Of a stretch of DNA of 56,662 nucleotides, positions 41,794-49,406 are shown piece by piece. The position numbers were made by a program, and so were the translations under genes. The stretch covers positions 1-56,662 of the forward strand of contig JAIEEQ010000007.1 of the NCBI GenBank assembly GCA_029067355.1. Direction: 5' to 3'. How positions within the stretch are numbered: the stretch's first letter is position 1; each line of letters opens with the position of its first letter. The notes beneath the pieces are model-generated. The model was not told where the DNA came from, searched no databases, and saw only the letters and a program-made list of their open reading frames with translations. The stretch is from Anaeroplasmataceae bacterium (GTDB lineage Bacteria > Bacillota_I > Bacilli_A > Acholeplasmatales > Anaeroplasmataceae).

Positions 41794-41814
41794 ATACTAT
41801 GCATTACATAGTAT
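41794..41814. promoter_or_regulatory. Palindromic operator 2, probable second PadR site
   Basis: The same half-sites as operator 1, ATACTATG and CATAGTAT, here separated by 5 nt, ending 2 nt before the padR SD. Confidence 0.75.
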
Positions 41815-41828
41815 TTAGGAGGGATGAG

Positions 41829-42140
41829 ATGAATGTTCAGATAAAAAAAGGAATCGTAGAAGTGTGTGTTCTTGCAAGCTTACGTAAGGAACCCTCCTAT
41901 GGTTACAAGATTATCAATGATATTTCTGAGTTAATTGAAATTTCAGAGTCTACCCTATATCCCATTCTTCGAAGATTAGAGGCTCAGGATATGCTTAGAA
42001 CATTTTCAAAGGATTTTAATGGTCGAATTCGGAAGTATTATGAAATAACTCGGCTTGGAGAAAAAAGAATAAAGGAATTTATTGATGAATGGAAGGACAT
42101 GGAAAGAGTTTATGATTTCATCAAGAGGAAGGGGAAGTAA
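41829..42140 (+). CDS. PadR-family transcriptional repressor
   Basis: 103 residues with the PadR winged helix: VEVCVLASLRKEPSYGYKII, then ESTLYPILRRLEAQDML and the wing RKYYEITRLGEKRI. Short, single-domain PadR-s2 type. ATG 41829 follows AGGAGG; the frame extends upstream only through operator 2. The next two genes encode a HAAS/DUF1700-like protein and a DUF4097-like protein, the common companions of this PadR group in Firmicutes. Two operator palindromes upstream suggest autorepression, released by an unknown envelope signal. Confidence 0.92.
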   Translation: MNVQIKKGIVEVCVLASLRKEPSYGYKIINDISELIEISESTLYPILRRLEAQDMLRTFSKDFNGRIRKYYEITRLGEKRIKEFIDEWKDMERVYDFIKRKGK

Positions 42141-42767
42141 ATGAGAAAAAGAGAATTTTTAAGACGTTTGGGAAATGAATTGTCCCATTTGGATCGGGAT
42201 GAGAGAAATGATATATTGGATTATTATGATGAGCTCATAGAAGATACAATAGAAAAGACAGGAAAAACTGAGGGAAATGTCATTTATGATTTAGGTGAAA
42301 TTGAGGATATAGCTAGAAGAGTTGATCCCTCTCATAGAAGAAAAATCCGTTATGAGGAGGAAGATGAGGATAGAACATATCATAAAAGAAGAGAAGAGGA
42401 AAGAAAAACAGATCATAAAAAGAAACGCTCTAGTGGAAAAATTGGAGTTGGCTTAGTTTTGTTGATTTGCTTATTTCCTTTATGGATTACAATCTTTGCC
42501 TTGTTGTTTAGTGGAATCGTTGTTATTGCGAGTGCGGGAATTGGATGCTTTGCGGGCGGTGTTGTCTGTATTTGGCATGGATGCACCTTCTTTGCAAGCT
42601 CTTGGGCTCAAGCATTATTTAAAATTGGAGTAGGAGTTACACTTATTGGAATTGTATTAATCGTAGGACCACTTTTAATGAAGATTATTGTTTTTATAGG
42701 ACATATGATTATATCATTCTTTAAATGGCTGTTTGGTGGAAGGAGGAAAACGACTTATGAAAATTAA
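42141..42767 (+). CDS. HAAS/DUF1700-type membrane protein
   Basis: 208 residues. The N-terminal helical domain (MRKREFLRRLGNELSHLDRDERNDILDYYDE) is the HAAS/DUF1700 pattern found after PadR genes. A highly charged linker (about 70-97) follows, then three hydrophobic segments (about 101-135, 140-160 and 165-195). It starts one base after the padR stop. In this gene arrangement the protein is thought to take part in envelope sensing, but the mechanism is not established. Confidence 0.88.
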   Translation: MRKREFLRRLGNELSHLDRDERNDILDYYDELIEDTIEKTGKTEGNVIYDLGEIEDIARRVDPSHRRKIRYEEEDEDRTYHKRREEERKTDHKKKRSSGKIGVGLVLLICLFPLWITIFALLFSGIVVIASAGIGCFAGGVVCIWHGCTFFASSWAQALFKIGVGVTLIGIVLIVGPLLMKIIVFIGHMIISFFKWLFGGRRKTTYEN

Positions 42768-43626
42768 GGGCTTTCTAATTACAGGAATCATTTTTGCTGT
42801 ATGTGGTATAGGTATGACAGCAGTGGCAAGTACTCAGATTGATTTTAATGAAGAGGTGAATGGTCTTTTTTCTGATCCAACCCTAGAGGAAAAAGAACAA
42901 ACCTTTGGAGAAATTGTTAAGATTCATTATGATGGTGCAGATGAAAATATTGATATTGTTTATCAGGAGGGAGAAAATACCTTTACCTATTATGAGGGAA
43001 AAAGCGTATCCTATGAAATTCAGTATGATGAAGAGCTAAAGGAGCTATCCATTGTGCAAAATCGGTCTCTTACTTTCTTTACTTTCTATATAAATAAGAA
43101 AAAAGCAGTATTATCTATTAATTCCCCTCTTGAAGGTCTTGGAATTAATGCTGCTGCTGGAAATGTTGGTTTAAGAAATTTAACTGTTTCTGAAACTACC
43201 TTAGATGTTAATGCGGGAAATTTAAAAATAGAAAATTCTAATCTTTCAAGCTTAAGCATAAAATCCTCTGCTGGTAATGTAACTATAAATTCAGTTCATA
43301 CAGATATAGGAAAGATTGAAGCTAAGGCAGGAAATCTAAGAATTGAAAATTCAAATATTGATAATGCGACTATTTTAGCAAATGCCGGGAATGTAAGGAT
43401 TTTAGATTCAATATTTACCACGATATATGCAAAGCTTAATGCTGGCAATCTGTCATTAGCAGGAGATATTCTATTCTATGGAGAACTCAAGCTAGATGCT
43501 GGAAATATGAATATGACCTTAGCGAGAAGTAGAAGCCTATATACTATAAATGGTGAGGGTAGTGCAGATACTCAAATTCTATATAAAGTATCAGCTGGAA
43601 ATGTGAAGGTAGGCTTTGGTGAATAG
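42757..43626 (+). CDS. DUF4097-like repeat protein with N-terminal membrane anchor
   Basis: 289 residues. An N-terminal TM or signal helix (about 5-25), a beta-rich middle, then eight AGN-containing repeats from about residue 129 (such as AAAGNVG, NAGNLK, SAGNVT and DAGNMN) typical of the DUF4097 right-handed beta-helix called a putative adhesin. It probably sits outside the membrane. ATG 42757 follows GGAGGAAAA and overlaps the previous gene by 11 nt. Last gene of the padR operon, followed by a terminator. Confidence 0.87.
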   Translation: MKIKGFLITGIIFAVCGIGMTAVASTQIDFNEEVNGLFSDPTLEEKEQTFGEIVKIHYDGADENIDIVYQEGENTFTYYEGKSVSYEIQYDEELKELSIVQNRSLTFFTFYINKKKAVLSINSPLEGLGINAAAGNVGLRNLTVSETTLDVNAGNLKIENSNLSSLSIKSSAGNVTINSVHTDIGKIEAKAGNLRIENSNIDNATILANAGNVRILDSIFTTIYAKLNAGNLSLAGDILFYGELKLDAGNMNMTLARSRSLYTINGEGSADTQILYKVSAGNVKVGFGE

Positions 43627-45567: not shown

Positions 45568-45996
45568 ATGATGAAAAAAGAAAATTGCCCATATTGTAAT
45601 TATGGAGATCCACTTGCAAAATTTGGATATTTAGCCTTTGAAACAGAGGTTTCTGAGGTAATCGTTTTTAAGGATCAAACGCACAAAGGGCGTATGGTTG
45701 TAGCCTATAAGAAGGACCATGTGGCAGAAATTCAGGATTTGAGTGAAAAGGATAGAAATGCCTTTATGAAGGATGTAGCTGATGTTGCAAAGGCAATCCA
45801 AAAGGCATATCATCCAGATCGAATTAATTATGGTGCTTATGGAGATACCTTAGGACATCTTCATTTTCATCTATGTCCTAAATATGAAGGAGAAGTTGAA
45901 TGGGGTGGTACCTTTATAATGAATACAGGAAATTTGGTTGATGAAAAGGCATGTCAAGAGGTTGCAAAAAAGATTATAGAAAACTATGAAGCATAA
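45568..45996 (+). CDS. HIT-family nucleotide hydrolase
   Basis: 142 residues. The HIT motif is HLHFHL (histidine triad) near residue 95, and CPYC near the N-terminus suggests a zinc site as in HinT-like proteins. It hydrolyses nucleotide phosphoramidates or dinucleotide polyphosphates; the substrate is unknown. It is 15 bp downstream of lepA with the SD GGAG, probably in the same transcript. A weak ACTTAA/TTAAGT hairpin (46017-46033) after it lacks a T-run. Confidence 0.92.
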   Translation: MMKKENCPYCNYGDPLAKFGYLAFETEVSEVIVFKDQTHKGRMVVAYKKDHVAEIQDLSEKDRNAFMKDVADVAKAIQKAYHPDRINYGAYGDTLGHLHFHLCPKYEGEVEWGGTFIMNTGNLVDEKACQEVAKKIIENYEA

Positions 45997-46115
45997 ATGG
46001 ATATATTGCTAAAAGCACTTAATTTTTTTAAGTTTCAACAAATTTTGACATACTTTTTCTTTTGAATGGAGTATAACATTTGCGAGGTGTCATTTTTTAT
46101 TTGGATTTTATCTTC

Positions 46116-46121
46116 TATAAT
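46116..46121 (+). promoter_or_regulatory. Probable -10 of the secreted-protein/ABC locus, plus a 7-G run in the ribosome site
   Basis: TATAAT (46116-46121) with no good -35; a TTGACA at 46045 is too far. The following SD is a run of seven G (46141-46147), a rare tract in this AT-rich sequence. Confidence 0.4.
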
Positions 46122-46154
46122 AGTAGAGTAAAATAAGTAAGGGGGGGAGAAGAT

Positions 46155-47000
46155 ATGATTAAAAAAATAGGGATGATTTGCATTTTGTGTTTATTTTTTA
46201 CAGTAATCTTTATAAACAAAGCTTCAGCAACTGAAACTACTGCTATGTTGAAGGAATTTAAAGTAGAGGGTTTAAAATATGTGAATGATAAAGATGAAAC
46301 GAGCAAAACAATTGCTGGTGAAAAATGGGAATATGGCAATATAGATATGTGGTCAGCTGTATATAAACAGCAAATTGGGAAATCTATGGTTTATTATGTT
46401 TTAACTGAAACATTGGTTAGCTCAAATCTAAATTCATTGAAAGGCGGATATTATAGAATGGTAAACGACTACATGAATCTAGAAATTGAAGGATATATGG
46501 ATGATTCTATGGATAACCTAAGACTTGTGAGGTATGCTCCTGAATCTGATTTTTTTGGAGAAAACACATCATCAGAATCCAAATCTATATCTCTAGGCAT
46601 TGGAGTGAACAAAAGCAAAGATATTAATTTTTCAGTTAATGATATAGAAGTTTCTGTTGGGACTGATTTAGATTTCTCATTTGGTGTTATATGGACTACA
46701 AATTATAGTATAGGAAATGTAAATTATGTAACAAAATCAATAGATAATAAATTAACTTCAAAAATAACTTTTGCAAAACAGGCAGATAAAAAATTGAATA
46801 CTTCATATCCGTATAGAGGAAATTTCATATTGCATACTACTGCGGTTTTTGAATTAGAAAATTATACAGAAAGATTAGAAGAAAAGCTTCATTTTAAAAT
46901 CGAATACACAGGGGCTATAAGAAAATATGCTTGTGTTATTTGGGGATGCAATGGGTGTGAATCCTTAAAGGATACCTATTCAAGAACTTATGATTTGTAA
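46155..47000 (+). CDS. Secreted protein of unknown family, partner of the ABC gene
   Basis: 281 residues. A Sec signal peptide (basic MIKK, hydrophobic core, likely cut after AKS-like KASA near residue 25) and no later TM helix, so exported. The mature part is beta-strand-like and polar, and its only cysteines are C260, C265 and C268 near the C-terminus (YACVIWGCNGC). I recognise no family. The SD is GGGGGAG. It lies 22 bp before the ATPase-permease gene and is probably co-transcribed. All eight or so Arg codons are AGA/AGG, while neighbours lepA and pnp use CGT often, which suggests transfer or low expression. A bacteriocin-like or substrate-binding role is possible but unproven. Confidence 0.75.
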   Translation: MIKKIGMICILCLFFTVIFINKASATETTAMLKEFKVEGLKYVNDKDETSKTIAGEKWEYGNIDMWSAVYKQQIGKSMVYYVLTETLVSSNLNSLKGGYYRMVNDYMNLEIEGYMDDSMDNLRLVRYAPESDFFGENTSSESKSISLGIGVNKSKDINFSVNDIEVSVGTDLDFSFGVIWTTNYSIGNVNYVTKSIDNKLTSKITFAKQADKKLNTSYPYRGNFILHTTAVFELENYTERLEEKLHFKIEYTGAIRKYACVIWGCNGCESLKDTYSRTYDL

Positions 47001-47022
47001 TAGTATTTAAGGGAGATAAACT

Positions 47023-49131
47023 ATGATAGAAGTAAAAAATGCAAAGAAAGTATATAAAAATAAATCAGAGGTGAAATGCGCCTTTGAAGAGATTAATTTA
47101 GAATTCAATTCAGCGGGTCTAGTTGTCATATTGGGATCTTCTGGTAGTGGAAAAACAAGTTTTTTAAATTGTTTATCAGGATTAGATGAATTGACTGAAG
47201 GAAGTATTACTGGTATTGGAAAAAATGATGCCTCTTTTGTATTTCAAGATTATCAGCTTATTGAAGATTTATCTGTTTTAGATAACCTATCCTTGGCAGT
47301 AGCTGTGGATGAAAAGAAAATACAAGACATTCTTGATGAGTTAAATTTAATTGATGTACCTCTTTCAAAAAAGGTTTATAATTTAAGTGGCGGACAAAAG
47401 CAAAGAGTTGCAATTGCTAGAGCTTTGCTACTGGATAAAAAAGTATTATTTGCAGATGAACCAACAGGAAATTTAGATGAAGAAAATTCAGTTTTAGTAG
47501 CCCAGCTATTAAAGAAAATTTCTCAAAGAAAATTAGTTATTGTAGTGTCTCATGAAAAGCAATTGTTTGAGAATATTGCAGATCAAGTGATTTATTTAAA
47601 CCATGGAAGAATTGAAGAAAGCAAAGGAACGACCTTCCAAGGAGAGGAATCAGAGAACACAACGCTAAAGCCTCATCTTTCCTTTAAAACGGCATTATAT
47701 ATTTCATTAAAAAGAATAAAAAAATCATTTGGAAGATTTACACTAAATACCATATTGTTATTTGTTATTTTCTTGACTTTTCTCTTGTGTTTGGCATTTA
47801 TAAGTAATGATTCTTATCAGTCTTATGCAAAAGGCTTTGAAGAAGCTGGACTAGATAATATAGATTTTTTTCCTACTGAAGATTCTTTTATGCAACGAAA
47901 ATCTATTTCTTTAATTGAAGAAGAAACAAATTTTATTAAGGATAAAACTTTAGTTGTGAGAAAACCCTATATGATTTCTAAAGATACAATATTTAGTGAA
48001 CAGCTTAATGGAATTTATGTAACAGATTATTTTTCAAGTGATCAAAGGGGAAATAGTAATTCTATTTATATAAGTTCTTATTTGGCAGAAAAAATTATTT
48101 TTAAAAGGGATATTTCTTTAGAACAATTCGTTGGAATGGATGTTGAAATCAATGATGCTCCATGTCATATTGTTGATATAGTGAAGAGCCCAGTGGTTTA
48201 TAGGGAAGATCAATTAGATTTTGATGAAATCTATTCCAGAATTTATTGTAACACAGAAACTTTTAATCATATTAAAAGGTATGAAAGTCTAAAAAAACAA
48301 AAAATAAATATTGATTGTCGTTTTAATACTAGTACTGGATATACAATTTCAACGCTTCAAATTCATTTAGAAGAAAATCTAAAACAATTATCTAAAAATG
48401 AAATCCTTATCAATCAGTCCTTTTTAGAAAATCATTTCAAAGAAGATTTTTCTAATTCTATTGGAAAAACGATTCAAGTTTTATTTCAAGAAAAAAAAGA
48501 AGAAAGAGAATTTATAATTCGGGGAATAATAACGGATCCAGAAATCGACTTTATCGTTTCTTTAGAGCAATTTGAGGATATCATTGAGTTGAATTTTAAT
48601 CCACAATATGGTATTTCTCTTACTCATCCTAATGCCTCTTTAATTAAAACTCTTGAACAACTGAATTATTTTCATTTTATGACGATTAGTTCAGAGCTTT
48701 ATAGTATGACAGCTATGATGACATTATTCATTGGAATTTTTGTGATAATATTTATCAGCGTATTTATTATTTTAATTTTGTTTGATTTTTCTTTAATTAC
48801 AAATAGCATTTTAATAAAAAGAAGAGAAATTGGAATTCTCAAAGCAATGGGATTAAATAGTAGAAGTATCAGTAAGCTATTCATAGGGGATAATATGCTA
48901 TCTATTTTAATTGCGTTTGTTCTTTCTTTAGTTGGCCTATCTCTATCTTTACTTTATATAAACCATGCTTTTATAGAAAGAAAAATGTGCTCAACAGCGT
49001 ATTTATATTTTAATTATGCTTACGCTTTGTTCATCCTTCTTTTATTAGGAATTTTATTTGGTACATATTTAGGTTTATCTCAATACAAATTATCAAAAAA
49101 ATCAGACATAGAATTAGTATATGAGAAATAA
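47023..49131 (+). CDS. MacB-like ABC transporter, ATPase fused to FtsX-type permease
   Basis: 702 residues. The N-terminal ATPase has Walker A GSSGSGKT (38-45), signature LSGGQ (121-125) and Walker B VLFADEPTGNLDE. After a linker there is one TM helix (about 238-262), a large extracytoplasmic region (about 265-560), and three C-terminal TM helices with the FtsX/MacB loop KRREIGILKAMGLNSRSIS. This is the architecture of MacB-type mechanotransmission or peptide-export proteins, all in one chain. It probably works with the secreted protein encoded just upstream. Arg codons are again mostly AGA. Substrate unknown; peptide export, immunity or lipoprotein handling are options. Confidence 0.88.
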   Translation: MIEVKNAKKVYKNKSEVKCAFEEINLEFNSAGLVVILGSSGSGKTSFLNCLSGLDELTEGSITGIGKNDASFVFQDYQLIEDLSVLDNLSLAVAVDEKKIQDILDELNLIDVPLSKKVYNLSGGQKQRVAIARALLLDKKVLFADEPTGNLDEENSVLVAQLLKKISQRKLVIVVSHEKQLFENIADQVIYLNHGRIEESKGTTFQGEESENTTLKPHLSFKTALYISLKRIKKSFGRFTLNTILLFVIFLTFLLCLAFISNDSYQSYAKGFEEAGLDNIDFFPTEDSFMQRKSISLIEEETNFIKDKTLVVRKPYMISKDTIFSEQLNGIYVTDYFSSDQRGNSNSIYISSYLAEKIIFKRDISLEQFVGMDVEINDAPCHIVDIVKSPVVYREDQLDFDEIYSRIYCNTETFNHIKRYESLKKQKINIDCRFNTSTGYTISTLQIHLEENLKQLSKNEILINQSFLENHFKEDFSNSIGKTIQVLFQEKKEEREFIIRGIITDPEIDFIVSLEQFEDIIELNFNPQYGISLTHPNASLIKTLEQLNYFHFMTISSELYSMTAMMTLFIGIFVIIFISVFIILILFDFSLITNSILIKRREIGILKAMGLNSRSISKLFIGDNMLSILIAFVLSLVGLSLSLLYINHAFIERKMCSTAYLYFNYAYALFILLLLGILFGTYLGLSQYKLSKKSDIELVYEK

Positions 49132-49148
49132 TCAAAACATATTGAATT

Positions 49149-49180
49149 AGATTCTACTGATTATAGTAGAATCTTTTTTT
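49149..49180 (+). terminator. Terminator of the ABC locus
   Basis: A perfect 10-bp stem, AGATTCTACT/AGTAGAATCT, 6-nt loop, 7-T run. Confidence 0.92.
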
Positions 49181-49230
49181 GTAAAGAAAAATAGATATAT
49201 CAATAAATTTAAGAAAAAAATTAATTTTTC

Positions 49231-49259
49231 TTGTTTTATAATAGGAAATAGTGTATACT
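49231..49259 (+). promoter_or_regulatory. Promoter of the thiT riboswitch transcript
   Basis: TTGTTT (49231-49236), 17 nt, TATACT (49254-49259). Transcription would start just before the aptamer. Confidence 0.75.
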
Positions 49260-49267
49260 TAATGTGT

Positions 49268-49351
49268 CATATTAAGGGGAGGCGAAAGCCTGAGAGGATA
49301 AGGATCTACCCTTAACCTGATCTAGGTAATGCTAGCGTAGGGAATAATATG
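49268..49351 (+). promoter_or_regulatory. TPP riboswitch (THI element) upstream of thiT
   Basis: The conserved THI-box parts are all present: AGGGGAG, CTGAGA (49290-49295), ACCC, ACCTGAT (49315-49321), then the TAATG and AGCGTAGGGA segment. P1 is CATATTA (49268-49274) with TAATATG (49345-49351). Thiamine pyrophosphate binding should shut down thiT. The P4/P5 stem is CTAG/CTAG in place of the common CTGG/CCAG, which keeps pairing. Confidence 0.96.
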
Positions 49352-49406
49352 AGGAACATATCTCATTCATATTCTTTTTTATGCTTGTCCTAGCGGACAT
49401 TTTTTT
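49346..49406 (+). terminator. Expression platform with two possible terminators
   Basis: T1: AATATGA (49346-49352) with TCATATT (49367-49373), then TTTTTT (49375-49380). T2: TGTCC/GGACA (49386-49399) around TAGC, then seven T (49400-49406). The T1 5' arm overlaps the 3' strand of aptamer P1. CTAGG in the aptamer (49322-49326) can also pair with CCTAG in T2. Confidence 0.7.

What the first reader, a model, noticed from the sequence alone, without database searches (positions are those of the whole stretch)
46116..49180. Isolated secreted protein plus fused ATPase-permease with atypical codon use
A 281-residue exported protein with three C-terminal Cys (C260, C265, C268) is encoded 22 bp before a one-chain MacB-like transporter, closed by a strong terminator. 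Arg codons are almost only AGA/AGG, unlike lepA upstream. I recognise no family for the secreted protein. It may be a bacteriocin-like system, a self-protection system or a substrate-binding/export pair. It is the best candidate here for an undescribed system.
Basis: partly seen in the sequence, partly recalled or inferred. Interest (0 to 1): 0.6.

Follow-up and report, generated by a model that had tools for sequence, protein, structure and literature searches.

The report
Hidden pore-forming toxin plus guardian transporter
A gut mollicute carries a small two-gene insert that appears to encode a secreted pore-forming toxin, distantly related in shape to staphylococcal and clostridial haemolysins, together with a dedicated membrane transporter that probably protects the producer from it; the same pairing recurs, at other places, in a scatter of related bacteria and seems not to have been described.

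Summary
In detail: a Sec-exported 281-aa protein (46155-47000) lies 22 nt before a 702-aa one-chain ABC-FtsX protein (47023-49131), with unusually low GC and almost only AGA/AGG arginine codons. No Pfam, NCBIfam or PADLOC family fits the secreted protein, yet a profile of seven homologues finds NetB (E 7e-6) and NetF (2e-4) in the PDB, and Foldseek on its AlphaFold model returns only leukocidin/haemolysin beta-pore-forming toxins in the top 50 (best 4.9e-10). A second, very divergent subfamily, present in the same genome, gives the same fold independently. All seven subfamily-1 copies sit directly upstream of an ABC-FtsX gene, at different chromosomal sites. Same-genus relatives have the lepA-HIT-thiT locus without the cassette, so it is a 3.1-kb insertion. 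ABC clades track toxin clades; some genomes keep the ABC with the toxin absent or broken; some loci add a ~170-aa lipoprotein. Best reading: a leukocidin-fold toxin with an ABC transporter for self-protection, a bacteriocin-like cassette. The fold is well supported; pore formation, target and the ABC's role (immunity or export) are inferred. Lactococcin 972 membership was tested and not met. Kind: new variant of a known kind.

The parts
45997..49148 (+). Inserted two-gene cassette; left edge at the HIT stop codon, right edge somewhere between the ABC stop and about 49215
   Evidence: Homology to the cassette-free lepA-HIT-thiT locus of same-genus relatives stops at 45995-46015 and resumes at 49215-49265; the hairpin at 49149-49174 resembles the hairpin after HIT in L105/L106. 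Right edge inferred.
46155..47000 (+). Secreted leukocidin-fold protein (281 aa), candidate beta-pore-forming toxin
   Evidence: Profile vs PDB: NetB 7.2e-6, NetF 2e-4; AlphaFold model + Foldseek: all top 50 PDB hits leukocidin/haemolysin
46155..46229 (+). Sec signal peptide, predicted cleavage after ASA (residue 25)
   Evidence: Read from the sequence; helix 2-32 in the model
46554..46715 (+). Residues 134-187, low-confidence segment at the position of the leukocidin pre-stem (membrane-inserting hairpin), shortly after the near-invariant Pro129 (column of residue 129 / codon near 46539)
   Evidence: pLDDT below 50 only here, at 21-25 and at 209-218; the PDB profile match runs through it; P129 is the only residue at 90% or more in 16 homologues. 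Role inferred.
47023..49131 (+). One-chain ABC-FtsX (MacB-type) transporter, 702 aa: ATPase about 1-205, TM about 235-265, extracytoplasmic domain about 266-557, three TMs within 558-688
   Evidence: Pfam ABC_tran and FtsX; motifs and hydropathy
49149..49174 (+). Terminator hairpin ending the transcript; probably the pre-existing terminator of the HIT gene
   Evidence: comparison with L105/L106

Best explanation
The cassette is a toxin/self-protection pair. The first gene encodes a Sec-secreted, divergent member of the leukocidin/haemolysin fold, which would bind a target membrane, oligomerise and insert the segment 134-187 as part of a beta-barrel. The second gene, in the same transcription unit, encodes a MacB-type ABC transporter that would keep the toxin from assembling in the producer's own membrane, which in these wall-less bacteria lies unshielded. 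Shown by computation: fold assignment, signal peptide, intact ABC motifs, conserved pairing, insertion into an otherwise conserved locus, joint descent of ABC and toxin types, ABC genes retained without toxin. Inferred: pore formation, the target (other bacteria more likely than host cells), and the protective role of the ABC.
For: Profile of 7 homologues vs PDB sequences: NetB 7.2e-6, NetF 2e-4, then Epx1 and CytK. A profile without the window protein and its nearest relative still ranks only Epx1, Epx4, NetB and NetF on top, though weakly (E 0.009-0.18). Foldseek top 50 of the window model all leukocidin/haemolysin, best 4.9e-10; the subfamily-2 protein of the same genome, with no significant sequence hit of its own, does the same, best 4.9e-8; the two subfamilies match by hhalign at 9e-7. 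All 7 subfamily-1 toxins directly precede an ABC-FtsX gene (gap 11-39 nt in the six intact ones), at unrelated sites; toxin-only searches of subfamily 2 found 6 further loci, 5 of them next to an ABC-FtsX gene. ABC tree: subfamily-1 ABCs and subfamily-2 ABCs in separate supported groups (96/94 each; labels clustered beyond shuffles). ABC without toxin: L075, L076, L077, L078; lipoprotein + ABC without toxin in L081, 81% identical in DNA to L080 over just those two genes; broken toxin with intact ABC in L022. The toxin has its own signal peptide, so it does not need the ABC to cross the membrane. Precedent: Sec-secreted bacteriocins of the lactococcin 972 kind with a downstream ABC pair proposed as immunity (PMC4055356, PMC11796350).
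Against: The Pfam Leukocidin model finds nothing in ten of these genomes even at E 10. TM-scores are low (about 0.34-0.52), the stem is unresolved in the model, and the alignment is only 7 sequences deep. Toxin-less ABCs may have other functions; ABC-FtsX proteins are abundant in the order. No experiment links these ABCs to protection, and even in lactococcin 972 loci the roles of the B and C genes are stated to be unverified (PMC11796350). One remote homologue sits by another ABC type (L037) and one has no ABC on its contig (L120).
Confidence: 0.55

Rival explanations
1. Same toxin, but the ABC-FtsX protein is an exporter or release factor: it pushes the membrane-associated toxin off the producer after Sec translocation, as MacB-type transporters do with some periplasmic substrates.
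For: MacB topology with a large extracytoplasmic domain; strict order toxin-then-ABC in subfamily 1; ABC and toxin types descend together.
Against: A single-membrane, wall-less cell needs no second export step after Sec; ABCs persist without toxin, which fits protection better than export.
Confidence: 0.2
2. The secreted protein is a leukocidin-fold toxin aimed at host or protozoal cells of the gut, and the ABC serves only indirectly.
For: The characterised leukocidin-fold toxins hit by the searches act on animal cells (established knowledge).
Against: Host-directed leukocidins are not known to need an ABC partner, whereas every subfamily-1 copy has one; scattered occurrence with ABCs outliving toxins looks like bacteriocin/immunity turnover.
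Confidence: 0.15
3. Not a toxin: a beta-sandwich surface or sensing protein that works with the ABC, for example as a ligand-binding partner of a resistance or envelope-stress transporter.
For: Fold does not prove function; the stem is poorly modelled; no family database match.
Against: Specific, unanimous match to pore-forming toxins in two divergent subfamilies, through the membrane-inserting region; no lipobox, anchor or second TM in the window protein.
Confidence: 0.1

Closest known systems
Leukocidin/haemolysin beta-pore-forming toxins (PF07968; NetB, NetF, Epx, alpha-haemolysin, LukD/F)
   Same: Predicted fold, size (about 255 aa mature), signal peptide, conserved Pro shortly before a pre-stem segment
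   Different: Only about 8-15% identity in the structural alignments, Pfam model blind to it, constant ABC-FtsX partner, found in gut mollicutes and other members of the class
Lactococcin 972-type bacteriocin loci (PF09683 + permease + TIGR03608 ATPase)
   Same: Sec-secreted effector followed by an ABC transporter proposed for immunity; TIGR03608 is the best-scoring NCBIfam model for the ATPase
   Different: Effector has a different predicted fold and is about three times larger; PF09683 not met; ATPase and permease fused; TIGR03608 score 140 against a cut-off of 255
MacB / FtsX-type ABC transporters (ABC_tran + FtsX)
   Same: Domain order, four TMs, large extracytoplasmic domain, intact ATPase motifs
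   Different: No MacA-like adaptor gene beside it; MacB_PCD below its cut-off; partner is a leukocidin-fold protein

Membership tests
Leukocidin/haemolysin beta-PFT family | Leukocidin fold (cap sandwich, rim, stem) | tested here: met
   Foldseek top 50 all of this family or, for one hit, the related Vibrio cytolysin, for two independent models; caveat: low TM-scores and unresolved stem
Leukocidin/haemolysin beta-PFT family | Detectable sequence kinship to proven members | tested here: met
   Profile A3: NetB 7.2e-6, NetF 2e-4; the single sequence alone gives none
Leukocidin/haemolysin beta-PFT family | Match to Pfam PF07968 above cut-off | tested here: not met
   No match at E 10 in ten genomes, nor in single-protein scans
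Leukocidin/haemolysin beta-PFT family | Oligomeric membrane pore | not testable with these tools
   Needs purified protein
Lactococcin 972 bacteriocins | PF09683 effector domain | tested here: not met
   No PF09683 hit in G000; five other genomes of the class have real ones
Lactococcin 972 bacteriocins | TIGR03608 ATPase above cut-off with a separate permease | tested here: not met
   140.5 against 254.85 bits, and fused permease
MacB/FtsX-type ABC transporters | ABC_tran plus FtsX permease in one chain, four TMs | tested here: met

The most novel reading that the evidence does not exclude
A so far undescribed class of interbacterial weapons: leukocidin-fold pore-forming toxins, acting on bacteria, that travel as small cassettes with a dedicated ABC-FtsX immunity transporter (and often an accessory lipoprotein) through mollicutes and other members of the class.
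Probability: 0.35. Interest if true: 0.78.

Novelty: new variant of a known kind. Interest (0 to 1): 0.62.

Why it matters
Leukocidin-fold toxins are known as weapons against animal cells. A divergent branch bound to an ABC transporter in gut mollicutes and their relatives would suggest a bacterial-competition branch of that fold, and would give a concrete, testable case of an ABC transporter giving immunity to a protein pore-former. It also offers a likely function for proteins that the family databases searched here leave blank.

Tried and rejected
Lactococcin 972 membership (the motif WxYG...WSxxY looked similar; PF09683 absent; predicted fold different). Pfam LptD_2 (E 0.0019, below cut-off) and AvrBs2 (0.078) hits of the secreted protein: taken as chance. 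Weak A3 hits L042 and L043: a housekeeping ORF and a sortase/pilin locus, chance. Plasmid collection: no match. Viral fold library: one unnamed hit at 9e-6, otherwise nothing below 0.001. A profile of 16 sequences over both subfamilies (A11) is too diluted to find any relative, and subfamily 2 alone finds none by sequence. The three C-terminal cysteines as a defining feature: not conserved. Paper searches for such a toxin/ABC pair, or for pore-forming toxins in Anaeroplasma, found nothing relevant.

Full report
Observation. The codon and base composition claims hold: 7/7 and 17/20 arginine codons are AGA/AGG and GC is 0.297 and 0.277, against 0.343 for the window and 12/28 AGA/AGG in lepA. The three C-terminal cysteines exist but are not conserved in the family.

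Where it sits. In same-genus genomes lepA and the HIT gene are followed by thiT (with its TPP riboswitch, Rfam RF00059 at window 49265-49361) without the cassette: thiT starts about 280-500 bp after HIT in L101, L105 and L106. Homology to these cassette-free loci stops at the HIT stop codon and resumes at about 49215. L105 comes from genome G006, which carries its own copy of the cassette elsewhere (L010). The hairpin at 49149-49174 resembles the hairpin that directly follows HIT in L105 and L106, so the cassette seems to have landed between HIT and its terminator; this is an inference from likeness. G006 corresponds to the record JAMPGQ010000022.1, titled Anaeroplasma bactoclasticum, so the window's genus is Anaeroplasma or close to it, in the Mollicutes; that they lack a cell wall is general knowledge of the class, not tested here.

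Relatives. Searches with the protein, then with a profile, found subfamily-1 homologues in only 6 of 160 genomes of the order, the window's own included: L010 (54% identity), L011, L012, L021, L022 and L023, at 22-25% identity for the remote ones. Every one is followed at once by an ABC-FtsX gene, and the outer neighbours differ each time: a sigma-factor locus and an aminopeptidase, ilvB and nadA, rplQ and a translation-factor gene, a helicase and dinB, a G3E GTPase and an acetyltransferase, efp. L023 has two tandem ABC genes. In L022 the toxin is truncated and its remnant carries stops, while the ABC is intact. One remote homologue lies outside the order, in G199 (E 2.8e-7).

What the secreted protein is. 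Single-sequence family searches find nothing. A profile of the seven homologues (A3) finds NetB at 7.2e-6 and NetF at 2e-4 in the PDB sequences, followed by Epx1 and cytotoxin K, aligned over the strand-Pro-stem region. Leaving out the window protein and L010 (and the broken L022), the same toxins still head the list, at E 0.009-0.18. AlphaFold on A3 gives a beta-rich model (mean pLDDT 67, pTM 0.71) whose main poor segment is 134-187; Foldseek against the PDB returns leukocidin/haemolysin toxins at all of the first 50 ranks, E from 4.9e-10, probability 1.00. TM-scores are modest (about 0.34-0.52), at least in part because the stem is unplaced.

A second subfamily. Reading the neighbours of related ABC-FtsX genes showed further secreted proteins with a P.N.PS....G motif, among them one in the same genome (L080, G000:C36). 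Searches with that profile found more in the order and in other families of the class. They match A3 by hhalign at 9e-7. An independent AlphaFold model of the L080 protein again gives only leukocidin/haemolysin toxins, and at one rank the related Vibrio cholerae cytolysin, in the top 50. Most of these loci add a ~170-aa lipoprotein, in the order lipoprotein-ABC-toxin, toxin-lipoprotein-ABC or lipoprotein-toxin-ABC; the window cassette has none. Counting only loci that were found by the toxin (7 of subfamily 1, 6 of subfamily 2, and G199, so 14), 12 have an ABC-FtsX neighbour, one has another ABC type (L037) and one has none on its short contig (L120).

What the transporter does. The ATPase motifs are intact, four TMs flank an extracytoplasmic domain of about 290 aa, and the domains are ABC_tran and FtsX, a MacB-type layout. 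In a tree of 28 ABC-FtsX proteins those of subfamily-1 loci fall in one supported group (with five toxin-less or unjudged ones) and those of subfamily 2 in another (with one toxin-less), 96/94 each; the labels are clustered far beyond shuffles. ABC genes without a toxin occur beside both: L075, L076, L077, L078, and L081, which is 81% identical in DNA to L080 over just ABC plus lipoprotein while the toxin is missing. L074 ends at a contig edge and cannot be judged. Immunity genes that outlive their toxin are usual for bacteriocin systems; a dedicated exporter should decay with its substrate. The toxin also has its own Sec signal. This favours self-protection over export, but does not prove it. 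In the analogous lactococcin 972 loci the downstream ABC genes are taken as immunity (PMC4055356), and their roles are stated to be experimentally unverified (PMC11796350).

Membership and novelty. By fold and profile the protein belongs with leukocidin-type toxins; by the Pfam definition it is not recognised, and pore formation is untested. It is not a lactococcin 972. The parts are known kinds; the constant pairing of a leukocidin-fold protein with an ABC-FtsX transporter, as a scattered, inserting cassette, was not found in the papers searched, which are open-licence papers only. I therefore call it a new variant of a known kind, with an open chance that it is a distinct class of antibacterial pore-formers.

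Limits. Target, activity and regulation are unknown. Most genomes are draft metagenome assemblies. Structure models rest on 6-7 sequences.

Noticed in passing
G000:C36, L080 287-3724 (same genome, outside the window): Second toxin-type locus of the same genome: ~169-aa lipoprotein, ABC-FtsX and a subfamily-2 leukocidin-fold protein.
   Followed up: yes
window 49265-49361: TPP riboswitch before thiT (Rfam RF00059, 59.3 bits).
   Followed up: yes
window 41799-43626: PadR regulator, HAAS-domain protein and DUF4097 'toastrack' protein in one apparent operon.
   Followed up: partly
L037 4974-11238: Remote toxin homologue followed by a lipoprotein, a 993-aa FG-GAP-like protein, an ABC ATPase and a membrane protein without Pfam match: a different transporter type beside the same kind of secreted protein.
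   Followed up: partly
L023 2485-6705: Two tandem ABC-FtsX genes with near-identical ATPase domains but divergent extracytoplasmic parts behind one toxin gene.
   Followed up: no
L079 1121-3889 and L083 1124-4017: ABC-FtsX genes preceded by short repeat proteins (GGI.G....G....C type) instead of a toxin.
   Followed up: no
L038-L041: Lactococcin 972-type loci in other members of the class, one genome with three.
   Followed up: partly
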